DNA of 48,821 bases, from contig VUYT01000059.1 of NCBI GenBank assembly GCA_008802785.1, positions 1 through 48,821 on the forward strand. Reading direction: 5' to 3'. Positions 1-48,821 of the stretch are shown here, one piece after another. Every line of letters begins with the position of its first letter. Within the stretch, counting starts at the first letter, position 1. The position numbers and the translations under genes are program-made. The DNA is from Symmetrospora coprosmae (taxonomy: Eukaryota; Basidiomycota; Cystobasidiomycetes; Symmetrosporaceae). The notes under the pieces are model-generated. The model was not told where the DNA came from and ran no database searches. It worked only from the letters and a program-made list of their open reading frames with translations.

Positions 1-412
1 GGTGGATGAGCCAGCGGATGGAGAGAAAAAACTCGAGATAATTTCGGGGGAAGTGGGGCCACGACGCAGGTAATTGGGGGTTTTTTGTTTTTTTTTTTGT
101 TTTTTTTGTTTTTTTGGGGGGGGGGGGGGGGGGGGGGGGGATGGGGTAGAGAACGAGCCTTAACGGCTGCTCTACTCTCGTGTCACCCCGAGGCACTGCA
201 ATACTTCGAACTGCACTAGCCTTGTGCGAGTGTGCGCTCGGGGTGATTGCGGGCGGACCGGGAGATGTGCTGATGTGATCTGCCTTACTGCGCTCGCTGG
301 TCTGCTCTGCTCTACTGTACGCAGGAGCAGGCGACGGGCGAGGAAACGCTGAAGGCAACAAGAGATGGAGGGAGAGGGGGAGCAGAGATGGAAGGAGCGC
401 AGAGCTACGGAC
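1..412. other. Left window edge, low-complexity, no gene seen
   Basis: This stretch should hold the rest of the phosphodiesterase gene that begins at 940, but no further exon with the expected family sequence is visible on either strand. It contains a T-rich tract at about 81-115 directly followed by 25 consecutive G residues at 116-140. Such a tract next to a gene that stops abruptly looks like a scaffold end or assembly artefact. No telomere-type repeat is visible. Confidence 0.6.
116..140. repeat. Poly-G homopolymer, 25 nt
   Basis: Twenty-five consecutive G follow a T-rich run (81-115). Poly-G tracts of comparable length occur at the right window edge, which suggests both are end-of-scaffold artefacts rather than a functional element. 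Confidence 0.9.
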
Positions 413-5231: not shown

Positions 5232-8061
5232 TCACCTGAACAGAATCATGATGATGCGCTGCGGCCATGGCAGTGCGCTGCGCTTAGCCCTCTCCTCGTT
5301 CAGCGCCTCTGCGCTCATCCAGCATTTCCTTCCAGACACAAGGTCGATCTCGACAAGCGGCTTGGGCTTCTTGCGGAATAGGGCGTAGCCAATGATGTAG
5401 AAGAGGATGACGACTGGTGCTGCCAGATAGCTCTGGAAGAAGCCTGTGACACGCTCGGAGGCCGAGCTGGTTCCTCCGACTGTGAGCGAAAGGGAAGCAC
5501 ATTCAGCGGACAGTTGCACAACCTTGCTCGCAGTTCGTCGCGCTGCACTCACGAGGAAAGAGGGCGACGTAGAACTGAGCGACTAGAACAAGCACGAGAA
5601 TGACTGCGCTGAGCGCGGACCCCCAGATGCCGCCAAAGGCCCTGAAAGGCAGCTCGTCGATATGGTGACCCTGGCGTTTCCAGGCCATGCGGAAGCGGAT
5701 GTGCGTGATGTTGATGGCCAGCTAGGACAGAGAGGTCAAAGTAAGCGTACGTTCGGTTGAGCGTAGATCTCCAGACGTACCCAAGTGAAGATGGTGGCGA
5801 GACCAGATACGGCGAGGAGCCAATCAAAGACCTGATCTCCAACGTCCTCAACGAGCTGGATGTATGCAAGAGGGAAGAAGACCAGCACGCTCGCCACCGC
5901 CAAGAGGGGCCGTCCCGCCTTGTCGACGTAGGCGAAGCATTTGGGAGCATAGCCCATCTCGCCCATCGCCTGGAGAGTTCGTGATCCGCCATAGACCGAA
6001 GACATGCCGATGGAGAGAACACTGACGAGAATAACGACGTTGATGAAGTCGGGCATGCCACTGACGTTTGCTTGGCGGTACATAATGACGAGGGCTGCCG
6101 TTTGCGAACAGGTCGTCAGTTTCCCAGTACAGATATGCGTCACACAGTAGAATATACTGACGACTGTTGTTGGCGTCAGAATTGCCGCCAACGAGATCGG
6201 GGTTGTCGTACGGCACGACCAGGCTAATGAAGAAGATGGTGGCGATAAAGACGAAGATGATTCGGTAAGCCGTCATCTTGATGGCCTTGGGCAGAGCTTT
6301 GCGAGGGTTCTATAGATAGCCAGGTAACAGAAGAGCTGGACGTTAGCGTCCCAATGACGTTCAGGGTCTGCCGTCGTGCGAGCTTTTGAGCCCACCGGGT
6401 GCTCGACAGCAGCCAGACCGACAAGCTCGGTACCTGCGGATACCCCATTCTCTGTCAGACAGTAGGACGGATCTTCTCTCGACATGTGACGCACCGGCAA
6501 AGCTAAACGCGGCTGTGACGAAGACAGAGCACACTCCCTTGAAACCATTCGCGAAAGCTCCTGGGTTGTACCAAAGCCGGGCACCCCAGTATGAGTCGAA
6601 GTCGCCGGAGGCTGGGCCACCACCCAGCACAAAGATAAGTGCCGAGAAGAGGAAGATGCCAATTGTAATGAGTTTGAGCCAGGAACTCCAGTACTCTGCG
6701 ATCAGAAAGAGAGCAGGAATGTCAGTCGGGCACGAACGTCAGCTCACTAGGGCTGGCCGAACGCACCTTCTTCAGCAAAGCCCCATGTGCCGAAGCTGAT
6801 AGACGATAAAGAGCGTGAGTGATGATCAATACCTTGCTTGTCCCTCAGCGCCAAGACACCCACATGTTGAGTATAAAGATGATTGCGGCAAAAACGGTAA
6901 TCCAGACGGCGAGGTTGACGCCCGTATTCCAGAACTCGACCGTAAATCCACAGACAACGAGCTCGAGGGGCAGTGTGACGGCTGCAGGACGGCAGGAACA
7001 GTCTGGGATCAGACCCCTGCGGACCGCGTCGGCGGACCTGTGCAAGTCGCTCACCCCATTGGAACCTGAGAAGGTCGTACGACACAGTGTCAATCTATGC
7101 GGTATCCATCGCAGAAAGGTGAATGGGGTTGCTCACCAATAATTCCAGCCTGGCCATTAGCGGAAACTGCGTCAGTAGGCAGAGAAACAAGGGAAAGAAG
7201 GAAGACGCACCCATGGCAAACCCGAACCCGCCATCGATAAATCGTGTCATCAAGCTTAGAGCAAACATATCAGTGTGGGCCACTCGTGTCGGGGTCCGAG
7301 GAGGCGTGGACACTCACGTGTAGAAACCGCCAGTGACGGGATACATGATTGCCATCTCTGCGATCCCTTGAGTAGTGAAGAACAGCATGACGCCCATAAT
7401 GCACCACGCTAGGCAGATGCCTGCCGGACCGCCATCTGCAAGAGCTGATCCAGACCCGACGAAGAGACCGGTGCCAATGCTTCCGCCGACAGCAATCTGC
7501 GATTAAAAATGGTATCAGCTGGAGATTTAGAAGCCCGCGTATGCAATGATGACTTTCCATGCTCAAGTGACGCGTCTTCATTTGGGTCTGCAGTGCCGCA
7601 TCTGCGCGTATGAGTAGCTTTAGCCTTCCGGGCTACTGGCCGTAATTCATAGGATCCGTTTCGCAACATACTCTGCAGGGGCACAGGGGCCTCAAGGTCT
7701 GTAACGCCATCAACTGCGAGAACAGCACGTTAGCCACGGTTGGCTGTAGAGCTATCGCGTAATGGAGATGCCCAGACCTACCGACATGTGTCATCGTCAA
7801 ACCCGGCGCCCGCTTGAACGACTCCGCCGTCAGACCAAGCCTGGTCATCCTGGACTCCTTGGTAGGGTCATAGATCCCACTATTCTCGTTGACGGTAGAG
7901 ACCTGTACGGCGCCGTCTTCTGCGTCCTTGAGCGCCGATTCTTTGGCAAAGACCGGGCCATCGCCCGACGGGCTCTTCTTGGCTGCCTTCTCGTCCTGCA
8001 TGATGCCGGAGCCGCTTCCAGCGGGTGAGACGGCCGTATCTGCAGAGTGTCGCTGGCTCAT
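5232..8061 (-). CDS. Amino-acid permease, yeast amino acid transporter (YAT/APC) family, 15 exons
   Basis: Plasma-membrane proton-coupled amino-acid uptake is the family role. Fifteen exons give 624 residues: 8061-7782, 7713-7672, 7601-7558, 7496-7318, 7254-7211, 7149-7137, 7065-7055, 6981-6864, 6795-6767, 6695-6495, 6433-6396, 6309-6165, 6094-5781, 5721-5553, 5479-5232. Motifs in order: cytosolic N-terminus, KTRHLSM, IAVGGSIGTGLFVGSG (TM1), YPVTGGFYTLMTRF, GFAMGWNYWFQWAVTLPLEL, ILNIFGTWGFAEE, FAGTELVGLAAVEHPNPRKA, GMSSVYGGSRTLQAM, HIRFRMAWKRQG, and a C-terminal cytosolic tail. Exons 6 and 7 are only 13 and 11 nt. Every intron is GT-AG except the third (7557-7497), whose only frame-preserving boundaries are GA-AG; see findings. 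If that intron is not removed accurately the protein is truncated early. Specificity cannot be read from sequence. Confidence 0.9.
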
Positions 8062-8560: not shown

Positions 8561-10021
8561 CTACTTTCTCTTTTTCAGCTGCTTGGCCTCCTCTCGCCTC
8601 ATCTTGCGGTTCACCGCTCCTCCCTCTACCGGCGTGCCCGGTCTGCTCTCGCCAGAGTCCTCGCGGACCGCAGCGGCATCCACCGTCGTTGCTGCCGCGC
8701 TGGACGGCACTGCCTCGGCAGCTGCTGGCGGCTGCCCTGAGACTCGCCGGATGGTAGAACGGACCAGCTTGGGCAGCCACGTCGACGAGAATGAAGGCTG
8801 GACAGCCGCCGATTCGTCAAGCGCGTGGGCTGCAGCTAAATGCATCAGCTTGGTGCCAGTAGGGAAGAATGACGGGCAAACGCACCGATGCCATCTTCCG
8901 CGATGATGCTGACCCGCCCATCCGGCTCGACAGTCATGGTCACGGCATTGTTTGGGTTGTCCCCCGGTCCAAGCGCGACGCGGACTCGCTTCCTGACTCT
9001 GCTACTTGCTGAAGGGTTGTCAAGCGAGCCCCACGCTACCTCGCGAGCGCGATCCTGGAAGCTACGAGAGGGGCTCTGCCTCGTCAGCTTGCTCGCACAA
9101 CACAGCAACGAGGAAAGGCTGGACCTACGTCCTGATGCGCTGGACCTCGCTAAACCGGGATAGGTGCTGCACCGCATACTGGACCAGAACAGAGAGCAAA
9201 GTGAGGAAGACGAGGACGGATCCGATTCCTGGCCTGTACCGCGAGTAGTAGTCTGCGAGGGTGACATGGGCGTCAGCCTTGGAGCTTATGCTCGCTGATC
9301 GCCGGCAGCCACTCACAGCCGGTTCCTGTGTCAGGGATACATTGTGGCAGTCAGCAACCAGTATTACGAAATCAACGCAATACGGAATACTGCGCACCTC
9401 GCCATCGCGGGACCCCATTCTCGTAGAAGTGGTGGTAGTGCTTCCTCTTTTCCGCGTCTCGGAGAATGCCAGCGATGATGCCGAGCCGAGCAAAGCGCTC
9501 CTGGTCTCCTCCGCGGTCTGGGTGCAATTCCTATAGAAGATAGCGTGGATGCGTCAGGATCGTTGTAGAAGTCCATGCAAATGCGTGCACGAGCGGACCG
9601 CGCACCATGCTGCGCTTCCGGTATGATTTGGCAATCTCTGCGGTCGTGGCGGTGGACGATACGTTCAGGAATGAGTAGAAGTTGGTCTTTGGTCCTTCAG
9701 CAGCCTCGAGCGACGATACGAGGTCGAAGATCTCGCTGCAACGGAGGAAGGCGGAACGGGCCGAGAAGAGGTCGCGTCAGTCTCAGCGCGTTCGCGGGCT
9801 CGTTCGGCGTGCAGCAGTTTGCCGGTGTAGGAGCGCCATATTGCGCAACACCCACTGATCCTCAGCGGTCCAAGCGAGCGAGCTGTGTGTATGCAGAAGC
9901 GGTGGATGCGATTGTCAGCGTGGAGCCCTGGACGCGTTTCCATTCCACGCTGTCGGTGAACTCACCCCGCCAGCAGGCTGAACAGGGCACACAGCGTGAA
10001 CCATAGCTTGATGGTGTGCAT
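8561..10021 (-). CDS. ERJ5: ER membrane J-domain protein, ERJ5-like
   Basis: Type I ER membrane J-protein thought to stimulate the lumenal Hsp70 Kar2 and support folding capacity. Eight exons total 309 residues (yeast Erj5 is 295): 10021-9966, 9882-9856, 9735-9606, 9530-9398, 9325-9317, 9252-9129, 9061-8886, 8835-8561. A signal peptide (MHTIKLWFTLCALFSLLAG) is followed by EDHEIFDLVSSLE, the J-domain (FYSFLNVSS, SYRKRSMELHPDRGG with the HPD triad, LRDAEKRKHYHHFYENG), a membrane segment IGSVLVFLTLLSVLVQYAV, then a cytosolic tail with VTMTVEPDG and a basic KRK end. Exons of 27 and 9 nt are needed; the 9-nt exon GAACCGGCT restores RWRGTGYYYSRYRPG. It shares a 149-bp intergenic region with COA1, transcribed divergently. 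Confidence 0.88.
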
Positions 10022-16234: not shown

Positions 16235-17753
16235 CTACTCGAGTTGCAGACGCCCCTTTATCAATGCCAGAACGGCCACCGCGTCCAGCTCAATGTCCTT
16301 GCCGTGGAAGCCGTCCACGAAGGTCTGCTGCTTTGGCGCATCCGCAAAGTCAAAGCTCTGTCCACCCCACATCGAGACGTGCTTGAATCCGAGCATGCTC
16401 GCAGCAAGCCCATAGTCCCTCGCAAATCCTCCCTCCTTGAACGCCTCGAGCACCATGGCCTTCGGGTCGGGTGGCATCCAGAGTGCATGAGCAAGGCCAG
16501 AACCATGCGCTCCGAGCATGACTGTCGTCCGGCTCGCAATGGCAATCTGCGTCTGCCGGCTCATCGTCTCCCATGCGACGACGTTCACCTCTACTCTTCC
16601 CGTAGCAGCGAGCGCCTCCAGCCCGTGGATGAGGCCAACGTGGTCGGCAGCGCGGAACCGCCGCTTGCTCGAGTGTTGCCGAGAGACGTAGGTGATGACC
16701 GGGATATCCGGAGCGGACATGGCCAGGTGCCCTTTGCCCCCGATCGATGCTGCGACCACGCTTGCTCGGATCGGCTCCCACCAATGATCGGGGCATGGGA
16801 GCGCCGCGATGTTCTCGATGACTTTGCCGCTTCTCTGGTTTTCCACTGTGCTGCGTGCTGCTGCGCGATCATAAAGAATGACTCGTTCCAGCAGGAGCGT
16901 GTTGCCGAATTCTGGGATAGCGCATCAAATCAGCTGCGCATTTTTATCTGCATTTATAGACATACCACCCACGAGCAATGTCATCCCAGTCCTCCTTGTA
17001 CAGCATGCCCAGCCCTGGAAAGGCAGATCGCAGGATATACGGGTTGAGCAGCACTCCTGCGTCTCTCCATGCCTTCTCGTCGAGTTTGGGTAGCCACAGT
17101 CGGTCGGGCATGTCGATGTGGATGCCCTTCTTCCCGTAACCAACCAGCGAGCTGTACACCCTCCAGCTGCCGAACAGCGCCTCCTCCACAAAGTGCGGCA
17201 TGCGATGCAGCGTCGACTTGGCGGCGTCGTTGTTGAAGAGCATGGTCGTGCCTTGCATCCTGCTCGCGTAGCCGCCTAGCGCCTTGCGCGATGCTGCGTC
17301 CGAGGTGAGCAAGGTCGTAGCGAGCTCCTCGATGCCCGTCCGTTCGTCCTGCAGCACGTCGTGCATGATGTTTTGCAGATTGTGCGGGATGTCGCCCGTG
17401 CTGTTGTCCGAGACGAGGTACAAGCGCCCTTCGCGCACGTAGAGATTGTCGAGCACCGTGAACCCCGCGACGTGCGCTAGAACTCGCGTACGCGGGATGG
17501 GCTGCCCGTCATGCGCAAAGTCGACGTGCGCGTGCCGCACAGCATCGTACGGTAGCCCGAGTGTCTCGCTCTCCGAGCTGGGGTGAAAGAGGTACGCGGC
17601 GAGTCCGGGGGCGCGGTGCGTCACGCCGAGGGAGAAGGTGTGGGCTGCGCGGTGGGCGACACGCAGGCCTGTAGAGGTGAAGGAGATGGTCCCGAGGAAG
17701 AGGAGCAGGGCGCAGAAGAGCGCCGTGGCTAAACGGAGTGCCGAGGTGGACAT
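16235..17753 (-). CDS. Glycosyltransferase family 61 (DUF563), type II membrane protein
   Basis: GT61 enzymes add xylose, arabinose or GlcNAc to glycans in the Golgi or ER. Two exons, 17753-16973 and 16911-16235, give 485 residues. The donor is GTGGGT at 16972; the nearby GTATGT cannot be used because it creates a stop at the junction. A short cytosolic N-terminus precedes one hydrophobic anchor (LATALFCALLLFLGTISF). The C-terminal half carries the family pattern: VITYVSRQ...RRF, then IASRTTVMLGAHGSGLAHAL, and the final FADAPKQQTFVDGFHGKDIE region. GAHGSGL is the most diagnostic segment of DUF563. Donor sugar and acceptor cannot be inferred. An isolated gene, upstream of the unknown tandem array. 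Confidence 0.87.
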
Positions 17754-18673
17754 GGCTGCGGGGGTCTTGACGAAGGTCAGAGGGAGAGCAGAGCATCAGC
17801 AAGCAGAGGGTCAGTCGCTTCAGCAGGAGCGCGTTGAGCCGTTCATTGAGCATTAGTGCAGCCATGCAGTCTAGCCCAGGCTATAAGCCTGTTCGAGGTG
17901 TCATTCGGTCCATTCAGACGGGTCTTTGTCCGTACAGCTGCAGCCGACTGCCATATTCGGCGAGGCGCGGCGGCGGCTTGCCTCCTGCCATTCAATCCGT
18001 ATTCAACAGCCACAGCGACGACGGCAGCGCAGCGATCTTGCAATCGCCGCCATCCAATCCAGTTCTGTCCTCCTCGAAGCGCTCGCGAAGTCGGTCGCTG
18101 CTGTTATGGTGCGAGGAAGAAGGACATGGGTCGCTGCCCGCTCGTCTGGCGCACGCCGCGGATATCGCCAGCTCAGACCAAGGCATCCGCAGTCGGATGA
18201 ATGCGTGCTGGATGCTGGACTCATTGTGCCGCCCCCCTCTGACGCGGCTCTGACTTCTTTCGCCCGCTCAGGTCTGCTGACTGGCAACGACTAACGAGTG
18301 CAATCAATCAGTGCGTCAACAGCTGCTTCATGTCTGACGCGCGAGCTTGCGTCAGGGAGTGCCCTACATGGATCAGCTGATCGGACCGTCATGTCGACGT
18401 CGCTCACCAGGAGGCGCTGCTGATCCAATCCTGGCTTTCCCACGGCATCGTTGGTCAGAGGCATCCTGAGTACAGTTGCGCTTCAGCCGCTGCTGCTGCT
18501 CTTGGCTCCTGAACGGCTCGACTCGCAGAGCGGATTAGGGAACAGTTAGTCACGCAGTCCGCCTCTTGAACGCATCGCCCAGTCGTCCCTCGGTCTCCTC
18601 CATCTCTTCCGACGCAGGATAGCCTTCAGCGCCCTTCGACTACGCTCAAAGCCCGGGTGACTCTGTCGGCACC
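17754..18673. other. Intergenic: GT61 promoter and upstream region of array unit 1
   Basis: 920 bases. The left part must hold the GT61 promoter. The right part belongs to the first tandem unit and starts with the conserved box at 18320. Several open frames of 60-140 codons cross 17830-18290 on both strands, but none resembles a known protein or splices sensibly. Confidence 0.5.
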
Positions 18674-19624
18674 ATGCCCTGGCTCGGTGAAGTACCTGAG
18701 GACCGCGTGCCAACTCTCCCTCCAGTAGGACTCGGAAATTGCATCACGGTCCAGGGCTCCGAATGCCAACGTGGGACTGTCAACCCTGCCGTCAGTTCGC
18801 TTGCGCCACTGAGAGCACTCTACCATGGCTACTGGTACACTGTTAAAGACGCAAGCGGCGCCCTTGAATACTTCCCGACGACGCGTGCGTGGGAGCGGGT
18901 TTACACGCTCTACATGCGGCCAGACGTCGCTTGCTTAGCATTCTCATCGCGTTACTTGACCAAAGTTCAGCAGGACGGGTCCAGCAACGCTAGCGACGGG
19001 GCCAGTCCCGCCGGTAGATTCAATGGCGGGGGCGCCGGCAGCAATGGCAACAACAACCAGGATGGCGGCAATTGCGATGATTCTCAAGCCAACCGGAGCA
19101 GTGGGGGTACACGTCACGGCAACAGCAGCATATCTGGAGGCGGAAACAACTTCAACTACAACGACTACGGCAATGCTCTGGGAAAGACCATGCCGCGCAA
19201 GCGGCACTCAAGTCCTGCCACTACAATGTCTGAAGCCTATTGAACCACCTGTGCCTGCAACTGGCGCTGAGATTAGGCGCGCTACCACGGGAAACATTGG
19301 CAACGCTTCCGCAGCCGCTGGCAGCCTCGTCGCCTTGTCGGCAACGAAAAGGCTCCTCCTAGGGCCGCACGTATGTCGCCTGTTGTGCCAAAGCCCCGCC
19401 CGGTGCTTGCGGGCGCTCGCAATGCAGTGCGCTCTGGACCTGCCACCTCTCATAATGCTCGGAGAAACACGAACATACCCCGACAACCTCCAAAGATGGC
19501 CTCCACTGCGAAGGCTGCCATCCCGGTCTTGCTTCGCGCTGGAGTCCATGCAACCCGTATCAGCAAGCCCAAGGCTTTAGCTCGCAACGATAGATTCAGT
19601 CAGAGGCCTGTCATTGCCATTTAG
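18674..19624 (+). pseudogene. Array unit 1, unknown family, frame interrupted
   Basis: An ATG at 18674 (MPWLGEVPEDRVPTL) opens a 189-codon frame ending at 19243. It contains ITVQGSECQRG, aligning with VHGVDCQRG in unit 3 and VSGNQCQMG in unit 4. The module follows (WYTVKDASGALEYFP, then YTLYMRPD), and then a Gly/Asn/Ser-rich linker. After the stop, homology to the other units continues in other frames: a segment with HATRISKPKA before the stop at 19624 matches NGIRVTKPSK of unit 4. So either the gene has decayed by frame changes or an unrecognised intron joins the parts. No signal peptide or membrane segment is visible. Function unknown. Confidence 0.5.
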
Positions 19625-20182
19625 TCAGTCCCGCTCGTTGACATCTGTCCTCCATGCAAGAAAGACCGCCCGTGACAGGATCTGACCAATAGCGACAGGG
19701 CTAGGACGTGAATGCTGCTTGGCTGAGACGATCAGCACGACAGCATCTTATATTTTGGCAGAGCTAGTGCCCGTGGGGAGATCCGAATAAACACACGGCG
19801 GCACCGCCCAGCTATTCGACCGGTGATTTCCTCGTCACGGCCGGTCTGTGCCGCGACAGCTGCGTTCTGTACAACATGAACTAGCTAAACACAACCTCGA
19901 AACAGCGTCTGGCCGGTGCATTTCGCCCGACTCACCAAGTCAGCTGCTTCGTGTCTGACGACCTTGAAGCGATTCCCGCGACATCGCGTCTGATAGAGCG
20001 GAAACCTGGTCTTAACTGATGTCGTGGCGGTGTCCAGTCAAGGCCAGATGCGCTTATAACGAAAGACTGTCTGCTCTCTTTGCACGTCTCTCGCCTGCTC
20101 ATTGATCTCCTGTCATCTCACCCTCGATCGTGCCGCAGCCCTCTTCCCCTACGCCAGCTCCACACCCACTTCACCGCAGGTC
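19625..20182. other. Spacer and upstream region of array unit 2
   Basis: 558 bases between unit 1 and the unit 2 start. It contains the conserved box at 19941, a GTGGCGGTGTCC box at about 20033 shared with units 3 and 4, and a TATA-like TTATAA at about 20053. No separate gene is seen. Confidence 0.5.
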
Positions 20183-21361
20183 ATGCCTGGACGAATCGTG
20201 CGTCAGCCGCCTCAGCGACCTCAATCGTCTCAACCCCTCGAGCAATCTCACTTCCGAAGCGGCCGATACCTTCGCACCAGATGGCGCTCTACAAGCTATC
20301 GCACCTAGTGGTGGGCTCTGGCTCGATGTGTACGACGAACGCGGCCGGTCCATCCAGTACCCCAAAGATCCGAATAGCGTAGGATACCGGATGAGGACAG
20401 CCTGGAGGAATGCGGCGGGTGAACATTGCTGGGTGGTCATGGGGACAGTCACTCTCGACAATGCCGGGAGGGCCAGCTCGAGCAGCGACCAAGGCGTGAT
20501 CCTCTTGCCAGCCGGTGATCGATGCTATTGGCGTACCGGGGAAGACCTTGCTGCCGGATTAGCATCTGTGCTGTACGCGCGCGTCAGTGGAGACGGTTGG
20601 CTACCTGTCTTGCATGACAGCGGGCAGGCCGTCAGCTTTCCGGACGTGCCCAATCAGACGGGCTACTGGCTATGGATGGACACACGCAATGGACAGCAAT
20701 GCTGGCGAGAGTGAGCCACAATTAGGCTAGCTGCCGACGGGACCAACGGAACTCGCCGCGCGGGCGCTGACAGCCGTAATGGATCCAATGGTGCGGTGGC
20801 AGTGGCGGCAACGGCCAGAATTATGCCGTACAGCAAACAAACGGGAGCAGCAGCAATGGCTATAGCAACAGCAACGGCACTAACGGCGGCGGTCACGGTG
20901 GCTACTATTCAGCAAACTTTCTTACGGCTGGCGCCGCCCAGAAGTCCACGCCTGCGTCGAAGCCACCCGGGACTATGCCCGCTCGCTCTGTCAACGAGTC
21001 TCGCTCAAGGCCTGTCGCTGACATCAAGACGGCTGTCACGCCGGCGCAGCCCGCTCCGACCAGGCACAAGCCCTTCCAGCCCGTCACTCCTGCCTATGAA
21101 GGTACTGGTGCCGCTCCAGGACGACCTGCTAAACTCACGGTCAGAAACATAACAGGCCCTCTGGCGGCTTTCGTGAAGCCCCCACCGGGTCTTTCTACTG
21201 CCGGACCGAGTGCTAGAGGACTTGCCGCTTCAACAAGCGCGATGGCAGGGCAGTCGCCCGTGAATCGCATCCTGCAGGGTGCAGCCACCAAGCCGACAAC
21301 AGCTACTAAGCGAAGCCAGTCGCACATGCCACCTGTGAGGCGTGCTACGCCTATTTCCTGA
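20183..21361 (+). pseudogene. Array unit 2, unknown family, duplicated module, frame interrupted
   Basis: The expected start (MPG..., 20183) lies in a different frame from the body. The body frame is open to 20714 and holds two copies of the family module: LWLDVYDERGRSIQYPKDP followed by YRMRTAWRN, and GWLPVLHDSGQAVSFPDVP followed by YWLWMDTRNG. A second body frame runs to 21361 with an Asn/Gly/Ser linker and the C-terminal motif RPAKLTVRNITGPLAAF. At least two frame changes separate start, modules and tail; I found no intron that fixes them. The GAGAGTGAGC at the first stop resembles a donor but its joins give the wrong frame. Probably decayed, possibly a gene with unusual splicing. Confidence 0.5.
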
Positions 21362-21991
21362 TCACGTTATCCCACTTTCGCGGCTCAGACATATGAGACA
21401 TTGTCAGACATCTGTACGACGCTCTCGCGCCGCCTGTGGCTCTGAACTGTTATCGCTTCGTTAGCTCGATAGGTGCATGCACCGGACTGGTTTCCGTCGA
21501 GATTGGCATCCTGACCGCTAACAGAACTATGCCTCTGAACAAACGGTACTGACAAGTTAGTCCCTCTTCCACTGCCACCTCCCCCAATTGCGCCTCTGTC
21601 CGCTCAATACGCTGTCAGACACTGAATAGAGCAGCTTAAACAGCTGCTTCATGTCAAACACGCAATTGCGTCTGACACTCTTAAGTGCACTTCTGATGGC
21701 CGAGCTGGCAGCGTGGTATCGCAGGCGGACGCTGTTTCCCACGGTGACGTACACAAGGGGGCCGGCGAGCTTGCTTTCGAGCAGTGTCATGGCGGTGTCC
21801 TTAGGGTATAAAATGAGCTCGCCTCGCTCCCGCTCTGACCTCTCCTCTACTTTCCTCGCCGAAGCCAGACCGGACCGCCAAGCTCACTGAATTTGCGATT
21901 CTCACACCGTCTCGCTCGCCCTTTACTGCCGGAACTCCTTATCAAATCCGCTTGTACAGCTTCCGTTCGCTAAGGAGCTCATACGCTCGAC
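21362..21991. other. Spacer and upstream region of array unit 3
   Basis: 630 bases. It holds the conserved box at 21641, GGCGGTGTCC at 21791-21800 and a canonical TATAAA at 21807-21812, about 180 bases before the unit 3 start. This is the clearest core promoter in the array. Confidence 0.55.
21807..21812 (+). promoter_or_regulatory. TATA box of array unit 3
   Basis: TATAAA, seven bases after the conserved GGCGGTGTCC box. Units 2 (TTATAA at about 20053) and 4 (TTTTAGAA at about 23412) have weaker versions at the same relative place. Confidence 0.5.
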
Positions 21992-22888
21992 ATGCCACAT
22001 GCCGTACAGTCCGCTCCCGTCCCGCTACCCGACGTCGAGTTCACAGTCCATGGTGTGGACTGCCAGCGGGGTGCTTTCCTCAATCCCTTCCATCCACCAG
22101 GGTAGTGTTTGAAGGCACCGTTTGGAGGCCAATACCTCGAGGTCAAGCGGACCCCCAATGGTACCAATGTAATGTACCCGGTCAACCCGCAAAGGTATTC
22201 GTATCGCCTCAAAAAACAAGACGGGCTTGACCATCTCTTGCTGGTGAGGCGTGAGCTTAGACCTGTACAAGGTGGCAGTACAGGCGGAGCAGGTGCTGGC
22301 GCAGGCGGCGGTGATGGCAGCGATGGCGCGATCCCCAATGACTACGGGGTACCCGCGCCGCCTCAAGATGGCAACAGGAGTAGCTCGAGCTCTGTCTACA
22401 GCTACAATGGGGGCTACGGTCACAATCAGTACCCCCTTGGACCCCCCTCTAAGGCTCCGAAGAAGCTGTACAAGCACGTTGGAACTATGCCTCGCAGCGC
22501 ACCTCATCTTGCTGTAAAGCCGAAAAGCCCTGTCATGATGGCCGACAACATCCTTCGAGCTCCTGGCAGTATTCTGGGCCCTTCCTCTTACAACAATTCT
22601 GGTCCTATCGCCAACAGCACGAAGGTAGTGGCAAAGCGCGCCTCGACAACAAACAGCCCGCCTATAGCCAAGCCCGTCAACTCCGCCTCTAGAGGTACTG
22701 GTGCCGCTGCAGCACGACCTGCTAAGCTTACAGTCAGGGACGTTACTAGGCCCCTGGCCGCCTTTGTGAAGCCAACGGGATCGGCTGCCGCCCAGCCAGG
22801 TTTTAGGCGCGATCCAAACGTGCTTGGTATGCGAACGAACGGGAACCGGGTCACCAAGCCATCCAAGCACGTTGCTGCTACCGCCTGA
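21992..22888 (+). pseudogene. Array unit 3, unknown family, one in-frame stop
   Basis: Reading from ATG 21992 (MPHAVQSAPVPLPDVEF) the frame reaches TAG at 22103-22105, codon 38, then continues open to 22888. Homology to unit 4 runs straight through the stop: VHGVDCQRG before it, the module with VMYPVNPQRYSYRLKK after it. Without the stop the protein would be 298 residues, similar to unit 4. The rest contains a Gly/Ala/Ser linker with YNGGYGHNQYP, GTMPR, the motif RPAKLTVRDVTRPLAAF and the tail FRRDPNVLG...NGNRVTKPSK. No intron of plausible size removes the stop. It may be a recent nonsense mutation, a readthrough codon or a sequence error. Confidence 0.6.
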
Positions 22889-23593
22889 TTACCGCCTTCT
22901 CTTCCTCGTCACGCTCCTCCTGTCTTGACACTTTTTGTACTAGTCTCCCGCATCACCATCATCCTCATGGAAGTGCGTCCAATGCAATCCTATCAGCTTT
23001 CGTCCGCTTGATCTTGCACAGGGAAGCAGATCAAATGCCTTCTAGACTGTCACTCCGTGTACAGCCGGCTGCCGCACATCCAATCTGCCCACAATTTGAT
23101 ATGCTGGAGACTGACGAAGCCGGTGAGATCCGAATAGTAAGACGGAATTGTCTTGCCTCCACTGCGACCGTCAATCGAACATATATCCGCTTGATCGCAC
23201 AGCGCCGCCCAGCTGCTTTACGTCAACCGTAGTCTCGTCCGACAAGTCCTTACGCAGAACCTATGGCCGCTCTGGTTGTCCGGTGCCTCTCGGCAGCTGA
23301 CGGTGTCAAACCGTCCGACGGCGTGCTGCCATCGCCACCAAGTGCATGCCAGTTCACACGGACAAGGGACCTGTGGCTTGCTGGGAAGAGCGTGATGGCG
23401 GTGTCGACATGCTTTTAGAATGTCCAGGCACGCTTGGCCTCTGCTCTCTCCTCTGCTAGACCGCCAAAAGGAACTACTCAATCTCGACAACCTAACAACT
23501 GCCCACCACCTTTCGTCGCGAATCTCTGCCTGCTTACACATCACAATCCATTCTTCTGTATCTTGCGTCAGCCAACGATCCCCTTCGCCGACA
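22889..23593. other. Spacer and upstream region of array unit 4
   Basis: 705 bases. GAGATCCGAATA at about 23125 is repeated in the unit 1-2 spacer at about 19778, showing that spacers are homologous as well. The conserved box (here CAGCTGCTTTACGTC) starts at 23210 and a GATGGCGGTGTC box lies at about 23394. No gene is seen. Confidence 0.5.
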
Positions 23594-24469
23594 ATGCCCG
23601 GTCTACTGCCGGGCTCCGGACAGGCTGCACCTGCTCCGAACTCGACAATAGTAGAGGTCTCGGGAAACCAGTGTCAAATGGGGGAGGAGGACACCTCCTT
23701 TACCCCGACAAGGTATACTCTCATGGCTCCTTTCGACAACTTGATGTGGCCCGTCCAGGATGGCAATGGCAACACCGTCTACTTTCCGCCCAATCCAGAA
23801 AGGACACACTACCGGCTTCGGTATCAGCAAGGCAGCACTCACCTCGTCTTGGTGCTTCGCCGAACGGTTCCCAACCCAAGTCCGGGCCAGGGTAGCAGCG
23901 CGGGTGCCAATAGCGAGGGCAACGGGTCTCGGGCGAACACTGGAAATCGCCACATGAATGGCAATGGCTACAGTAACAACGGCAATGGCCACAGTAACGG
24001 TAATGGCTACGGCAACCATGGTTATCATGGCGCTCAGGCAGGATATCGCTTCACTTCAAGTTCTGCCTTAATGGTGCCGGCGAAGCTATCCAAGGCTGCA
24101 ACGCCTCCTGCGCGCAAGGCTACCCCATTTGCAGCAGCTGCAGTCAACGCTCGCGTCAAAAAGGCTACTTCCAGTTCTCGAACTTCCGATACTGCAGCAT
24201 CTCGACCAATGAAATTCACAGTGGCGGACGTTACTGGTCCACTGGCTGCTGTTGGCTTTCACGGAAACAAGAAATCACCTACACCATCGTCTGCTGCTCA
24301 GAACATCCAGCTACCTGCCGATACGAGCACGTCAAGGGCGACTCCAGCTTCCGGCCGCGACCCCAACGTCCTCGGCGTGCAGTCAAACGGTATTCGTGTC
24401 ACCAAGCCATCCAAGCCGTCTCGCACAGCAAAGCCTTTGGCCAGCCGTGCCGTTCCTGCTACCGCCTGA
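23594..24469 (+). CDS. Array unit 4, intact protein of unknown family (291 aa)
   Basis: The only uninterrupted member: ATG 23594 (MPGLLPGSGQAAPAPN) to the stop at 24469, no intron needed. Visible parts: VEVSGNQCQMG at residues 20-30, the module at about 42-95 (YTLMAPFDNLMWPVQDGNGN, then VYFPPNPERTHYRLRY, then LVLVLRR), and an Asn/Gly-rich linker at about 105-150 with NGNGYSNNGNGHSNGNGYG. A basic low-complexity region, RPMKFTVADVTGPLAA, RDPNVLG and NGIRVTKPSK complete it. No signal peptide or membrane segment, so probably intracellular. The basic tail could bind nucleic acid and the linker is of the type that condenses, but both are speculation. The start is supported by the same MP start context in the other units. 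Confidence 0.7.
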   Translation: MPGLLPGSGQAAPAPNSTIVEVSGNQCQMGEEDTSFTPTRYTLMAPFDNLMWPVQDGNGNTVYFPPNPERTHYRLRYQQGSTHLVLVLRRTVPNPSPGQGSSAGANSEGNGSRANTGNRHMNGNGYSNNGNGHSNGNGYGNHGYHGAQAGYRFTSSSALMVPAKLSKAATPPARKATPFAAAAVNARVKKATSSSRTSDTAASRPMKFTVADVTGPLAAVGFHGNKKSPTPSSAAQNIQLPADTSTSRATPASGRDPNVLGVQSNGIRVTKPSKPSRTAKPLASRAVPATA

Positions 24470-24823
24470 TTACCACTCTTCCTCATTGCCACGCCCCTGC
24501 TTCATCTGAGCACTTGTACCAGTCCCCACATCCCTGTCATCCTCCCAGACGTGCGTCCGCTGCGATCCCATCGTCTCTCATCCGCTATCAGTTGTGCGCA
24601 CTCGCGCAGAACGGATGTCTCATAAGGTTCGCATATGCCCGTACCACTGCAAGCCGTGCACGGAGGCGGTGAGAAGGAACCCTTAATCTGATTGCACGGT
24701 CTATCGATACACTCGATTTCTTGACAAAGGCGAACGGAGCGCACAGCGGCTTGTAGGGTATATCGTATCCCTTTCACGCGCAGAAATTGTCATGTCATCT
24801 TGTATTTGCATGCCGGAGAAAGA
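24470..24823. other. Convergent flank of array unit 4 and PTC1
   Basis: 354 bases. The first 100 match the 3' flank of unit 3. The remainder is PTC1 3' flank with no recognisable feature. Confidence 0.5.
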
Positions 24824-26601
24824 CTACAGCGCAACGACGAGGACGCTGAGGTTGTCGGTCGAAAAGTTCTTGTGAACGTGGAGGCTGGTCAGCATTGCCT
24901 TCTGGGGTAATGTGAGTTAGACAAGCTCACCTTCAGCGCGTGGTCGAGGAGGATCTTGCTGGCCTCCTGGGCGTCCTTGGTGCCTCTAATGAGGTCGACT
25001 GCCGTCTGGTCTTCGCACACGTCCCAGAGCTGCATTCCGCAAACGCCCATCAGCCCAATCCCATCGCACCACACCCAACCCGGAACGAGCGGGAGGAAAA
25101 GGCAACGCACCCCGTCGCACGCAATGATGAGGAACTGATCATCCTCCCCGAGTGTCGTCTCGGTCGTGTACGGCGAGCCGACGACAAACTCCTTCATGCT
25201 CGAATCGCCCAGGCTGCGCGTGACGGCAAGGACGCCATTGACGCGGTTGTTCATGACGAACCCGCCCGCGTCCGTGATGCGCTTGACCTCCTGCACGTCC
25301 GAGCCCTTGTGGTCGTACGTCAATCGCACAGCTTTCCCGCCGCGGCTGTCGTGCGTGCGTCAGTCACATCGGTACGAAGGTCAGCATGTGCGGTGAGGAG
25401 AGGTGAGGGACGGAGAAGCGATCGACTCACCTGAGGACTGCCCGGGCATCGCCGACGTTGGCCGTGTACAGCGTCCGCTTCGCCAGATTCTTTGGTGCCG
25501 CAGGCGGCCTCGCGCCCTCTGCTGGCGGTTCCGCGGCTGTCGAGGACGACGCTGCCGTACTGGTGGTAGTGGTGGTTGTAGACGTGGGCGAGGCGCTGTC
25601 CTTGCTGCCGCCAAAGAGGCTCTTCATGCGCTCGCGGTGGCTCCCGTCCCCGAATTTCCGCTTCTTCTCCTCCTCCTCGGGCGCCTCCGCTGCATCATGG
25701 GCACCGGCGCTGCCATCCGCGGCCGCCCCGCCGACGCCGACCTCGCTTCCAACGACGGCGGCGGAAGAGGGAGAAGGGTCGTGCTCGAGCTCGACGGCGT
25801 TTCCGTGCTCGTCCTCGAGCCGCAGAAACGCAGTCACGGCCGTGCAGCCAGAGTGCGTCCCGCCCTGCGCGGCGAGCTTTGACAGCTCGCCGTCGACAAC
25901 GTGGAAGGTCGCGTTGAGCAGGTCTGGGATGGGCTGTGTGGCCTCGCCCTCGTTGAGCTGCTTGAGGAGGTACTGTGATACGGGACCAGCGCGAATGGTG
26001 GAGTGTGCGTGAGTAATCACGCACCCCTCCGCATGGAAACCCCCCGGACCCACCTTGTGGAAGTGAGCGCCGCACCACTCTGCAGCGTGCTTGCCTGCAT
26101 GGCCATCAAAGACGGAAAAGTAGCCCTGACCCTGTTATTGCGCGACCGCGAACGCGAATAAGTGACGTCCGGACATCGGTGTCAGCTTGCCTGCCTTGCA
26201 CTGCCCCGCTCCGAGGATTTGGATTGGAGTCGGTGCGTCGCTCGCACCTTCACGCCGCCAAAGTCGTAGATGAAGGCATGGCTGTCCTCCATTGTCCTCC
26301 TGCACTTTTTGTTCCTGTCCTCGCTGACGCCGACCCTGAAGGAGCCCCCAGTGTGGGCCGGGTGCTGGTTGATCGTGCCGTGCGTGTATGACCCTTTGGC
26401 CTGGGTGATTGGGGCGGACGAGGCGTTGGGCGACGACGGCCTGCGCACAGGCTGCTGTCGGACGTGTGCAGGCGTCGCAGAAGCTGGGTGCTGCTGTTCA
26501 TGACTGGGCGGTGTCTGCATCTGCTCGGGCGACTGCGTGTGCCCGTGGGCGTCTGCTGCGGCGCCATCGTGCCCGATCTGGAGGTGCTGCTCGGAGGCCA
26601 T
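24824..26601 (-). CDS. PTC1: Protein phosphatase 2C, PTC1-like
   Basis: Metal-dependent Ser/Thr phosphatase; Ptc1 dampens stress MAP kinase signalling in yeasts. Six exons, 26601-26248, 26131-26054, 25972-25431, 25345-25111, 25029-24931 and 24901-24824, give 461 residues. PP2C motifs in order: [30 protein letters not shown] (metal-binding Asp and Gly), [51 protein letters not shown], and [14 protein letters not shown] at the end. Compared with the yeast protein (281 residues) it has a long Gln/Pro/His-rich N-terminus of about 80 residues and a charged, Ser/Thr-rich insertion of about 110 residues between the GCTA and VGDARA motifs. The frame is open upstream to 26847 but that part translates a CGT/GAC repeat as poly-Arg, so I start at 26601. 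Confidence 0.92.
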
Positions 26602-30306: not shown

Positions 30307-32684
30307 ATGGCAGGCAGCGCCTCGGCTGTCCAAGCCACAGTCACAACGTCGGTCCGGGCGAGTAAGACGGTGCGTTGCAGGAGAACTCCCCACCACATTG
30401 TATCGCTGCTGTGCCGACACTGACCTTCCACCCGTTGGACGTTGGACGAACGATCCGCAGTGGGTCCTGCCGCCGCGAGCTAAGCCTGGCCGCAAAAGCA
30501 AGAAGGACCTTGCTGCGGCTGCAGCAGCTGCTCCTGCAGCCTCTGAGGATGCAGCGGAAGATGATGCAGATTACGACAAGGTCCGCTCAGGGCGTCTGTG
30601 GTCCAGTCCGCTCGAACGCTGCCAGAGCTGACCGGACCCGCGCATCACAGACGTCGAGCAGAACAAAGCAGAAAGCGTCGCGCGAGCGAAAGCAAGAATA
30701 CATTGCCGAACTCGAAGCCAAAGTGCGGACGTACGAGCAGGGCGATGGCGAACGCGCCTCCTTCTTCCAGGTAAGAACTGCCTGCTTGGACGACCGCGGC
30801 CCCTTCTCCGAAACCAAACATGTCTTGCACCCCATGCCCGCAGGAACTGGCAAAGCGCTACTCGGAGGAACGAGACGCCTTGAAGAAAGAGAATGAAGAG
30901 CTGCGCGCGCGCATACTGGTCCTCGAGTCGTCCATCCCGCAAAGCTCCATCCCGCCGGCTCTGCACCGGGCCAGCTCGTCCTCGGACGGGACGACAAGCC
31001 GGCCAAGCCGGCCAAAGCGCCAGAAGACGCGCGCGGACTCCATTTCGTCCGCTGCCTCCTCCTCAGCTGGCTCTTGCACCCTGTCGTTCGCGAGCACTGC
31101 CCGCCCACCTCTGCAGCGCGCCTCGATCCCAGCGTCCCGTCCCGCCGCTGCCACTGCCGCCGCTGCCGGACCGTCTCCGTCCCCTTCGCTCTCGCCCCAG
31201 CTGCGCATCATCCCCGCGCAGGATGCCAATGCATCAGGAAGCGTGCGGTACAGGTATCCCGATGCATCTTCGCTGGCCCCCTCGGCCGCTGCGTACTACA
31301 TCCCGCCCTCGCCACCTGTGTCATCCGATCTCTCCCCAGGCGTGCGCAGCGAGACGGCCCTCCCGCCAGTCCCATTCCCAGCACATGCACAAGCGTCACC
31401 CCAGCACACCCACAGGAGCGGCTGCGGCCTCTGCGATGAAACGAGCAGCTCGCAGTGCATATGCCAGGAGCTCGGCATAGCGGGCGGCCAGAGCTGCGGA
31501 ATCGGCGGTGCAGGCGCAGACTCTGCACCACCTGCTGCCCACCTCGCTGCAGCCGACAACACGTCATGCGGCATGTGTGACGAGACGGCGTCCGAGTCGT
31601 GCATCTGCAAGGAGATGGGCCTGCGCTCTGGCTCGGATGCCGCTACCTCTTCCGCTCCATCACTCGCAGCCCACACTCCCAACATTCCCGCCGGCGCAAA
31701 CCGCCAGCGAGACACATTGTCGATGTCTGCTGTCCCTCTCCGCCTCGCCAAGCGCAAGCGCTCGAACAGCCAATCCAGCGGCAACAGCAGGCCCGTCATA
31801 TGGCGCATTGACAATGCCGGCGCACATACCCCGCTCCCGGTCCCCGCGCAGCCGGTTCAGTCCTCCGGACCGCGCACATCGCCGGCTGCGGGCGTTGCAC
31901 TGCGCAGGAGACTCATCAAGGTCGGCTCGCGGTTGCCGTGCTCGGGCGACCCAAAGACGTGCTTGGCGTGTGCAGACGATCCGTGCGTTCTGGCTTCGAT
32001 CTCGGCGCGAAGGCGAAAGGAGACGGGAGCTGACTGCGGTGGTGCTCGTGGTTCTTGTATGCAGCGCTGGACAGGCGTTCTGCTCTGCATTGAGCAGTAC
32101 CGTCTGCTCAACCACCCCGTGCGCCAACTGCCCCAATCGCCCTTCACCCCTGGCGAACGAGGTCAAGATGCGGAGCAGCCCGGCTGTGTCGGACTCCACC
32201 GGGACTACTGCTATCTCCTTGCTGGCTGCATCGTCCTCGCCCTTGCTCGCGCCCGAAGCGTACCTTCTATCGTCGGCACCGGGCGAGACACAGACGGAGA
32301 CGGAGCTTAAGGTGTGTCGCATGCGGCAGGACCTGCGCCGGCGCGATTCGAGCACGCGAGACGAGGTGCCGGACGCCATGGTGCCGTGCTCGGATGCCTG
32401 TGGGTGCTCTGCTCTCTGCCCCAGCCTCTCTCCGCCGAAGAAAAGCGCCCCCTGCTGATGCCGATGCGGTTCATGCCTTTGTTCCTTTTAACGACTCGAC
32501 AGGGGCCACCTTGCGCGCACATCCCAACATCGGCTTTGCCAATCTCGACCTGCTCGCCAGTGTCGTCGCCAAGAGGACGCACTGCACTGCATCGGAGAGG
32601 AGGGACGCTGAGGGCAAGGTCATTGAGATTGGGCGCGAGGGTGTCGAGGAGGGGTTGGAGTTCCTGGACCACGTACGCGACTAG
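30307..32684 (+). CDS. HAPX: Iron-responsive bZIP regulator HapX
   Basis: HapX binds the CCAAT-binding complex and switches iron-using and iron-acquisition genes. Six exons, 30307-30369, 30461-30580, 30651-30770, 30844-31982, 32095-32399 and 32503-32684, give 642 residues. The Hap4-like CBC-binding motif WVLPPRAKPGRKS (22-34) is formed across intron 1. A bZIP follows: basic region SSRTKQKASRERK and coiled coil ELEAKV...ELAKRYSEERDALKKENEELRARI. Cysteine-rich regions are CGLCDETSSSQCIC (about 294), CGMCDETASESCIC (about 342) and CSGDPKTCLACADDP-STVCSTTPCANC (about 466-490), likely Fe-S sensing. The C-terminus VPCSDAWATLRAHPNI is restored by splicing intron 5. The basic region has Ser where bZIPs have Asn; the intron before it uses a weak GTCCGC donor, so that junction is the least certain. 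Confidence 0.88.
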
Positions 32685-33039: not shown

Positions 33040-34763
33040 ATGGATGATGCCGAATCTCCGCCCGCAAGGACGGAGCCGACGCTCCCAACGGCATCAACGA
33101 CAACAACGTCCACTTCAACTCTGCCAGACGCCTTCTCAACGATTCGACGCCCTCGCCTGCGCAAGACGGCAGTGTACGGCAAGACGAGGACCATCAAGTC
33201 GGCTAAAGCGACCGGGAGCAGCAGTATCGGCGCGCAAGGCGGAAATGGCAGCAGCAAAGTCGACGATGGAGAGCTCGTGGTGCGTTGCTCACTTGCCTCG
33301 TCTGGAAGCAGTGTCACTGCTTCCCGGGGCTGTGAATACCCATGCTGGCTTGTGCTGATTGTCGCCTCTTCTTCTCTGCGAACCATCACCGCATGGCCCA
33401 CCCCTTCCCCTTCTTTCCGCTTTCGTAACCTCCCTCCACACCACAGCTGCAAGAGACCAAACGCGCCAAGAAGAAACGCTCGGGCTTCAAAGTCGCAACC
33501 GACAACTTCAGTTTCGACGAGGACGCATTCGCCAGGATGAAGCTCAGCGAGGTGCCAGTCGGCACCAACCCGTCCGCTCCGTCCGCGGCCGCCCGTGCCC
33601 TCAAGGACAAGAGCAACGCGCTCAATCTACCCAAGCTCGATCTATCGTACAAGCCAGCAGAGTCAGAGCAGACGGCAAAGCCGCTGCGCGAGGGCGACAA
33701 GGGCAAGAAGCCGGAGTACCTGAAGGAACCGCCCATCGCGCCACCTTCCTCGCCTGCTCTTCCTCTGGGGTCCTTCGTCTTCGGCGCTGCCGCTAGGGCC
33801 CTGCCCGCCCATCCACCTGTCCGCACGTACAGCTCCGCATCCAGCCTATCCTGCGGCATCCACACGTCCACACCTGCACGCTCGTCCTATCTTCAGTCAG
33901 CCACGCACCATCGCTTCCTCGAGATGGGACTGGCCGATCTGCCTGCCATCGAGGGCGATGCAGACATTTCTTCGTCGCCCGGCAGCGGCATTGAGCTGGG
34001 CAGCAGCAACAACGCCGGCCGAGAGCTGCCACGCTCGCCGGAGCACAGGCGAAAGCATGAGCAGAACGTTGGCTCAGCAGACCCGCCCGCATCGCCGCCT
34101 CCTCCGTACGTCACGGCAATTGATCGGCTCTCCAGCGCCATGCAGATGGCGCTCCACCTACAAGGAGACAGAGCAGCCCTCTCCCCTGCCTCTTCGTCGA
34201 CCGGGGCTCAATGCGAGGGTCGCACAAGCGGTGAAGACGAGGGAGCAGTCAGCGAGCCGATGGTACGGGGTGAGAGTGATGCCCTCACCTTCCCCATCGC
34301 AGAGGGCGCCAAGCGGGACAAGGGCAAAGGGAAAGAGAGCAAAAGCAGGCAAGCGCGATCGGGATCGAAGACCATCGACATGGCAACGGAGCTCGTCAGG
34401 CCCGGGCAATCACCCTTCCCCAGCAAGAAATCGACACTCGCCCAGAAAAAGGCCGGCACATCGGGACACGTCGCCTCATCATCGGCTGTACCGCCCAGCG
34501 GCCTCGCCAAGGTCCACAAGCAAAGGAAGAAGCAGAGGTCAGTCTTGGAGGACGTGTCTCAGATCGCGGAGAAGCAGGCCGTGCAGAGTGGAGCCATCAG
34601 GAAGAAGCTGCGCGGCAGGACCGTTATGACGGAGGAGCCGGGTGGCTCCAATATGGCGCGGACCAAAGCTAGCAAGGGGAAGGGAAAGCAAACGGAGTTC
34701 AAGATCCACGGTGCGCCCTTCGAGCCAGATCCGCAAGCGAGCTCGGACGACATTGGCATCTAG
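33040..34763 (+). CDS. Unknown disordered basic protein (518 aa)
   Basis: Two exons, 33040-33279 and 33447-34763, joined in phase 0 by a GTGCGT donor and a CACAG acceptor, give 518 residues. I do not recognise the family. The N-terminus has RRPRLRKTAVYGKTRTIKSA, a short basic patch with a YGKTR element, then KRAKKKRSGFKVATDNFSF and FDEDAFARMKLSEV. The rest is Ser/Pro/Ala-rich and probably disordered, with basic clusters DKGKGKESKSRQARSGSK, HKQRKKQRS, KKLRGR and KASKGKGK. There is no membrane segment or signal peptide. Basic clusters and low complexity suggest a nuclear, chromatin-associated or regulatory role, but this is inference only. It lies head-to-tail with HAPX, 355 bases downstream. 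Confidence 0.65.
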
Positions 34764-48132: not shown

Positions 48133-48821
48133 GCTCGCCAGCAGGGCCCCGCCTACTGACGATGCTGCACGGCGATACTGACACCTGCCGCCTCTGCATT
48201 AAAACAGTACGCTGTGATAGTGGAGCAAGCCTATGTATCGATACGAAGCAGTGACAGTGTACATCTAATGCACGGAAGCGAGTTGGCCCGCGCTCGCACC
48301 CCGTCCTGTTAGCCATCTGAGCGACACACTAGCACCATTCAGCCGCGTATGCCCCGGAATATCGTCGTTGCACGACTGACTGCACTACAGCACATAATGC
48401 CCACAACATAGCCCATGGATGAGGCCAAGCCAAGCCAGACCAAGCTAGAATGAACAGGGGTCGGAACTCAGGGCGAAAAAGAGGCCAAGCTAGCGGACAG
48501 ACTACAACGACAGACCAATCTGCACGGGTACTGATGGACTCGGATTGCGGATGTGGGGTCCCTGATAGGGCAGCTCGACTCGGCTCGGCTCGGCAGGCCA
48601 GCGCAGAAGCTGGGACTTCGCGGGCGATGAGAAGCTCAAAGAACGGAGAGGAAGGTTCGAGGGAGAAGAGAAGATACAGTAGCTGAGAGAAAGAGGAGGC
48701 AAAGGGGGGGGGGGGGGGGGGGAACGGATATGGTATGCACAGGGGGGGGTGGCGCCCCCGTCAACGCGGGGGGGGGGGGGGGAGCCGGGGGGGGGGGAGG
48801 CGGGAGGGGAGGGCGAGGGTG
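48133..48821. other. VPS68 3' flank and right window edge
   Basis: 689 bases without recognisable coding sequence. From about 48700 the sequence becomes poly-G with interruptions. Probably untranslated region followed by an unreliable scaffold end. Confidence 0.6.
48704..48821. repeat. Poly-G-rich scaffold edge
   Basis: Runs of G at 48704-48722 (19), 48742-48749 (8), 48768-48782 (15) and 48787-48797 (11) are separated by short mixed sequence. The mirror of the 25-G run at the left edge suggests sequencing or assembly artefact at both ends. Confidence 0.8.

What the first reader, a model, noticed from the sequence alone, without database searches (positions are those of the whole stretch)
18320..24560. 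Four-copy tandem array of an undescribed protein family
Four head-to-tail units with a period of about 1.6 kb encode related proteins that match no family I know. All share V.G..CQ.G, then a Trp/Pro/Gly module, an Asn/Gly/Ser linker and a basic tail. It is the only locally expanded, fast-diverging region among conserved housekeeping genes, which suggests a lineage-specific family under birth-and-death evolution.
Basis: partly seen in the sequence, partly recalled or inferred. Interest (0 to 1): 0.85.

Follow-up and report, generated by a model that had tools for sequence, protein, structure and literature searches.

The report
Decaying four-copy orphan gene array
Four neighbouring, related genes of an unrecognised protein family sit head to tail in a eukaryotic (probably fungal) genome, but only the last still reads as one complete gene, so this looks like a fast-changing, partly decayed local gene family whose role is unknown.

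Summary
The array is real. Four units repeat every 1.57-1.70 kb (18.3-24.6 kb). A head-module profile built without a given unit finds that unit as best untrained hit in the window, 4 of 4 times (E 2.4e-4 to 1.8e-15). All four units share a 15-base upstream element found nowhere else in the window. Units 2-4 share a tail; unit 1's is not recognisable. No match reaches a Pfam or NCBIfam cut-off.

Unit 3 has an in-frame TAG in the module. Unit 2 has two modules but an out-of-frame start, then a stop and frame change (or an intron). Unit 1 stops before the tail. Codon composition sits near intergenic background (fourfold GC 0.49-0.61 against 0.69-0.83 in 8 neighbours).

Best reading: an undescribed, apparently non-secreted family (beta-rich module, Asn/Gly/Ser linker, basic tail) under birth-and-death evolution with relics. 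Nucleic-acid binding is a weak guess from one predicted fold. Host species and fungal relatives could not be examined, so 'lineage-specific' is untested. Interest moderate to low.

The parts
18320..18334 (+). shared upstream element CAGCTGCTTYRYGTC, unit 1 (354 bases before ATG)
18674..19243 (+). unit 1 ORF, 189 aa: head module (about 18734-18967), N/G/S linker, then TGA before any recognisable tail
19941..19955 (+). shared upstream element, unit 2 (242 bases before ATG)
20025..20034 (+). TGGCGGTGTC, proximal shared element, unit 2
20183..20308 (+). unit 2 start codon at the conserved place, in a frame that stops at 20306-20308 and does not lead into the modules
20226..20711 (+). unit 2 head modules a (20226-20468) and b (20493-20711), one open frame, closed by TGA 20712-20714
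20711..20802 (+). candidate 92-nt intron of unit 2 (GTGAGC donor, CTNAY branch-like site, GCAG acceptor); alternative is nonsense plus frameshift
20804..21361 (+). unit 2 linker and basic tail, in another frame than the modules
21641..21655 (+). shared upstream element, unit 3 (351 bases before ATG)
21790..21799 (+). TGGCGGTGTC, proximal shared element, unit 3
21992..22888 (+). unit 3: head 21992-22102, in-frame TAG 22103-22105 inside the module, 260 further open codons 22106-22885 with module remainder, linker and tail
23210..23224 (+). shared upstream element, unit 4 (384 bases before ATG)
23396..23405 (+). TGGCGGTGTC, proximal shared element, unit 4
23594..24469 (+). unit 4: the one intact ORF, 291 aa; module about 23636-23875, N/G/S linker about 23879-24070, basic tail 24071-24466

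Best explanation
This is a tandem gene array in a eukaryotic, probably fungal, genome, made by local duplication of a unit of about 1.6 kb that carried promoter, gene and 3' flank. It encodes an undescribed, apparently non-secreted protein family with a 75-80-residue beta-rich head module, a flexible Asn/Gly/Ser linker and a basic, low-complexity tail with short conserved motifs. The array is turning over by birth and death: unit 4 is intact, units 1-3 are truncated or interrupted. Shown here: homology, unit structure, shared upstream elements, the stops and frame changes as read, near-background codon composition, third-position excess in the tails. Inferred: that unit 4 is expressed and acts inside the cell, the head module binding a partner and the basic tail holding the protein to a polyanion such as DNA, RNA or chromatin. 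That binding step is the weakest part (about 0.2 on its own).
For: Leave-one-out profiles find each unit's module and the tails of units 2-4. Shared upstream element in 4 of 4 units and nowhere else in the window; exact TGGCGGTGTC only in units 2-4. U3 TAG, U2 out-of-frame start, U1 early stop. Third-position excess 13 of 23 and 12 of 19 differences in two DNA-defined blocks, p 0.019 and 0.007. Named frame is the best of three in 5 of 5 array pieces by codon log-odds. No signal-peptide-like N-terminus in U1, U3, U4 (maximum 10-residue hydropathy 0.59-1.26 against 3.07 in the neighbouring gene used as control). U4 tail 20 K+R against 4 D+E. One confident all-beta model of the U4 module.
Against: Lesions could be sequencing errors or introns: a plausible intron exists in U2, and looser GT..AG pairs in U1, U2 and U3. 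Stop-free frames of U1 and U2 are not beyond shuffles (24 and 15 of 300). The U3/U4 3' flank is about as alike as their tails, so purifying selection on the protein is not strong. The fold is unstable: 4 of 5 models for U4 are under pLDDT 50 and 5 of 5 for U1 are at or below 53.3; no structural match at E <= 0.001. No expression evidence; no relatives seen.
Confidence: 0.45

Rival explanations
1. All four units are working genes; the interruptions are introns or sequencing errors.
For: U2 candidate intron 20711-20802 joins modules and tail in one frame. With any GT..AG pair of 35-220 nt, 3 candidates bridge U1, 11 bridge U2's start and 37 bridge the U3 stop; the U1 set includes a 135-nt one with a CCTCCTAG acceptor. 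U3 stays open for 260 codons after its stop.
Against: With GT[AG] donors and YAG acceptors, none bridges U1 or U2's start within the ranges tried, and the one for U3 deletes the CQ.G part of the module. The looser candidates have poor donors or delete module residues. The segment the U2 intron would remove still reads N/G/S-like in the module frame. At least three separate errors would be needed.
Confidence: 0.2
2. The whole array is a relic; unit 4 is open by chance and makes nothing useful.
For: Codon composition near intergenic background in all 5 pieces, U4 included (fourfold GC 0.49, intergenic 0.557); 3 of 4 copies damaged.
Against: U4's 357-codon stop-free frame reached by 1 of 300 shuffles; amino-acid pattern kept although modules are very diverged; third-position excess.
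Confidence: 0.2
3. A non-classically secreted or host-directed family.
Against: No signal-peptide-like stretch in U1, U3 head or U4; host species unknown.
Confidence: 0.1
4. The resemblance of the units is a composition artefact.
For: Pairwise U1 matches are weak (phmmer 1.5e-4 to U4 at best); the linkers are low-complexity; the tail profile also gives E 1.8e-4 to 6819-7139, probably composition.
Against: Leave-one-out module profiles, which exclude the linkers, and the shared upstream element; DNA blocks of 78% over 103 and 74% over 73 bases.
Confidence: 0.03

Closest known systems
Tandem gene arrays with gene relics in yeasts (PMC2822764; passages seen)
   Same: Contiguous paralogues, some degenerated; that paper reports relics in 11% of arrays in nine hemiascomycete yeasts and reads them as birth-and-death evolution.
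   Different: Here 3 of 4 copies are damaged as read, the family has no recognised domain, and copies are very diverged.
Smut orphan genes (PMC5897528; passages seen)
   Same: That paper counts 201-1,186 orphan genes per smut genome, most without a conserved domain.
   Different: Whether the window comes from a smut, and whether this family is species-specific, was not testable.
OB-fold and similar small beta-barrel domains
   Same: Several weak structural matches of the one confident U4 model are proteins I know as OB-folds (RPA, Stn1-Ten1, DNA ligase; fold assignment recalled).
   Different: Best E 0.12, query TM at most 0.50 in the 50 rows shown; no sequence match; not reproduced with U1.

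Membership tests
Tandem gene array under birth-and-death evolution | contiguous paralogous copies in one orientation | tested here: met
Tandem gene array under birth-and-death evolution | some copies degenerated while another stays intact | tested here: met
   as read from the sequence: U4 intact, U1-U3 interrupted; sequencing error or splicing not excluded
Tandem gene array under birth-and-death evolution | copy number differs between related genomes | not testable with these tools
   no fungal genomes held
Any described Pfam or NCBIfam family | score above the curated cut-off | tested here: not met
   best Pfam E 0.02 (WXG100_2, 1 of 5 modules), 0.082 and 13.3 bits against a cut-off of 27; NCBIfam none at E 1
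OB-fold domain | significant structural match | tested here: not met
   no PDB match at E <= 0.001; best 0.12
OB-fold domain | nucleic-acid binding | not testable with these tools
   needs an assay
Secreted effector cluster | N-terminal signal peptide | tested here: not met
   hydropathy of the first 40 residues only (37 for U3 head), no dedicated predictor: U4 0.59, U1 1.26, U3 head 0.83 against 3.07 in the control

The most novel reading that the evidence does not exclude
A young family, perhaps born from noncoding DNA (codon composition near intergenic background), whose small beta-barrel module plus low-complexity linker and basic tail binds nucleic acid, and whose local copies expand and die fast because of genetic conflict such as allorecognition or drive.
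Probability: 0.08. Interest if true: 0.75.

Novelty: new member of a known kind. Interest (0 to 1): 0.33.

Why it matters
If related genomes bear it out, this is a compact case of an orphan gene family caught in turnover: one intact gene beside three differently damaged copies, with shared promoter elements and near-background codon composition. It would let one test how young families gain and lose function. As it stands, orphan tandem arrays with relics are a common kind of thing, so the interest lies in the unknown module rather than in the arrangement.

Tried and rejected
Family searches: Pfam, NCBIfam and PHROGs (best E 0.032, unknown function) gave nothing above a cut-off. PDB sequences: U4 gave a Tet4 variant at E 0.0034 over residues 65-200, mostly linker, and congerin II at E 2; the module profile nothing below 0.71. 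I did not follow these.

Fold searches: no match at E <= 0.001 for the U4 module in PDB or viral models (best 0.12 and 0.081); the U1 model is too poor to search with (best 2.9).

RIP-like mutation as the cause of the stops: the array leans mildly that way (TpA/ApT 0.68-0.93 by unit against 0.47 and 0.53 in the flanks; substrate index 1.20-1.33 against 1.30 and 1.31). The substrate index stays well above the usual RIP threshold (about 1.0, recalled) and GC is also lower, so I do not favour RIP but cannot exclude an old, light effect.

A further module at 9859-9978 (E 0.021 in one profile): on inspection a short CQRG coincidence. A conserved palindrome in the upstream element: the 7-bp perfect repeat is in U1 only; U3 has other short palindromes, U2 and U4 none at these settings. 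Global DNA alignments used lax gaps; their identities are not used. In one search the piece named u2_tail was in a wrong frame, and the composition row 'U3 tail' too; neither is used, one search has the right frames.

Papers: searches (listings and abstract openings) showed no description of this array among the papers listed; that is no proof that none is in print. Passages of PMC5897528 and PMC2822764 were seen, not the whole texts.
Full report
What is there. Four head-to-tail units lie between about 18.3 and 24.6 kb on the + strand, between a glycosyltransferase-61 gene on the - strand (Pfam match in 16238-16924; 16947-17753 is taken as its N-terminal part, without a Pfam match of its own) and a PP2C gene on the - strand (24892-26134). 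A 15-base element, CAGCTGCTTYRYGTC, occurs at 18320, 19941, 21641 and 23210 and nowhere else in the window on either strand at up to one mismatch; 0.07 are expected and 0 of 100 shuffles reached 4. It lies 354, 242, 351 and 384 bases before the four start codons. TGGCGGTGTC occurs exactly three times in the window, in units 2, 3 and 4, 158-202 bases before ATG; with one mismatch there are 14 matches in all against 5.15 expected, most of them outside the array. U3 and U4 are also alike across the end of the ORF and the 3' flank (73% over 153 columns, E 7e-20) and in the 5' flank (61% over 251 columns, E 3e-5). The duplicated unit thus carries its flanks.

Homology. Pairwise protein matches are strong for U3/U4 (BLASTP 9e-14) and weak for U1 and U2 (best phmmer E 1.5e-4 for U1, 6.4e-4 for U2, each with U4). 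To avoid circularity I built the head-module profile from the other units only and searched the six-frame stop-to-stop fragments (25 aa or more) of the window. The missing unit came first among untrained fragments in 4 of 4 cases, E 2.4e-4 (U1), 9.3e-8 (U2), 3.3e-7 (U3), 1.8e-15 (U4), the best non-module fragment being at 0.32, 0.021, 0.053 and 0.17. The two modules of U2 are each found when left out (6.6e-7 and 1.7e-4). The tail is shared by U2, U3 and U4 (3.8e-7, 7.8e-14, 1.8e-7 when left out in turn); no fragment from U1's tail region is among the six hits listed for the three-row profile, while an unrelated fragment at 6819-7139 reaches 1.8e-4.

Integrity, as read. U4 is a single open frame of 291 codons from ATG 23594. 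U3 has TAG at 22103-22105 within the module, followed by 260 open codons. U2's start codon, at the corresponding place, is out of frame with its modules; the module frame ends at TGA 20712-20714 and the tail lies in another frame. A 92-nt intron (20711-20802) with a GTGAGC donor and a CTNAY site 32 bases from its end could link modules and tail; by eye, the neighbouring PP2C gene has an intron with a GTGAGT donor. Yet the segment so removed still reads N/G/S-like in the module frame, so nonsense plus frameshift is the alternative. With GT[AG] donors and YAG acceptors no candidate bridges U1 or U2's start within the ranges tried, and the one for U3 deletes the CQ.G part of the module. With any GT..AG pair of 35-220 nt there are 3 candidates for U1, 11 for U2's start and 37 for U3; their donors are poor or they delete module residues, but they cannot be excluded without cDNA. 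U1 is a 189-aa ORF that stops before any recognisable tail. So 1 of 4 copies is intact, if the sequence is correct. I did not check neighbouring genes systematically for frame errors.

Coding signal and selection. The longest stop-free frame is beyond shuffles in U3 and U4 (1 of 300 each) but not clearly in U1 and U2 (24 and 15 of 300). GC at fourfold sites is 0.49-0.61 in 5 array pieces against 0.69-0.83 in 8 neighbouring ORFs, near that of array intergenic DNA (GC 0.557). Codon log-odds in frame are negative in 5 of 5 array pieces and positive in 5 of 5 held-out neighbours, although the named frame is the best of three in all 5 array pieces. In the two DNA blocks found without protein guidance, differences fall on third positions 13 of 23 times (U2/U3, p 0.019) and 12 of 19 times (U3/U4, p 0.007). 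Nei-Gojobori estimates: dN 0.37, dS 0.73 (U2/U3 tail); dN 0.63, dS 1.81 (U3/U4 first tail part); dN 0.27, dS 0.82 (U3/U4 end of tail); module dS is saturated in U3/U4 and U1/U4 and 1.9 in U2/U4. These rest on protein-guided alignments, which lean towards low dN. Selection has kept the protein to some degree, not strongly: the U3/U4 3' flank is about as alike as their tails. At the DNA level U2 and U3 are alike in one part of the tail, U3 and U4 in its end and the 3' flank, which may reflect recombination among copies (inference).

What the proteins look like. U4: residues 1-95 with pI 6.0; a 64-residue linker with 16 Gly, 12 Asn and 10 Ser; a 132-residue tail with 20 Lys/Arg against 4 Asp/Glu, pI 11.9. 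There is no signal-peptide-like or membrane stretch by hydropathy (no dedicated predictor was on hand). Structure prediction on the five-row module alignment gave one confident all-beta model in five for U4 (pLDDT 88.6; the others 44.7-49.7). With U1 as the query none of five was confident (best 53.3), though four strands fall at corresponding places. Foldseek found nothing at E <= 0.001 in PDB or viral models. Several weak PDB matches are proteins that I recall as OB-folds; that is a lead, not a test.

Limits. No genome is held for the window, and four scans of viral and prokaryote contigs found no relative, as expected for a eukaryotic gene. Neighbouring genes are eukaryotic in kind (RuvB-like 1 by PDB sequence match; TIP49, PPR, PP2C, ABC, UPF0220 by Pfam).

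Verdict. It is best described as an orphan tandem array with one intact gene and three damaged copies. That is a known kind: relics occur in 11% of arrays in nine yeasts (PMC2822764), and smut genomes hold 201-1,186 orphan genes each, most without conserved domains (PMC5897528). What would raise the interest is a function for the module.

Noticed in passing
window 18674-24466: Array genes lack the GC-rich third positions of their neighbours: fourfold GC 0.49-0.61 against 0.69-0.83, even in the intact U4.
   Followed up: partly
window 18334-18355: Perfect 7-bp inverted repeat CTGACGC/GCGTCAG beside the unit 1 upstream element; not found in units 2-4 at the same settings.
   Followed up: partly
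window 6819-7139: A + strand fragment matches the tail profile at E 1.8e-4, probably by composition; not inspected.
   Followed up: no
window 30775-32307 and 33429-34760: Two long + strand ORFs without any Pfam match at E 0.01; the second has neighbour-like codon usage.
   Followed up: no
window 80-140 and 48768-48818: Simple T-rich and G-rich repeats near both ends of the window.
   Followed up: no
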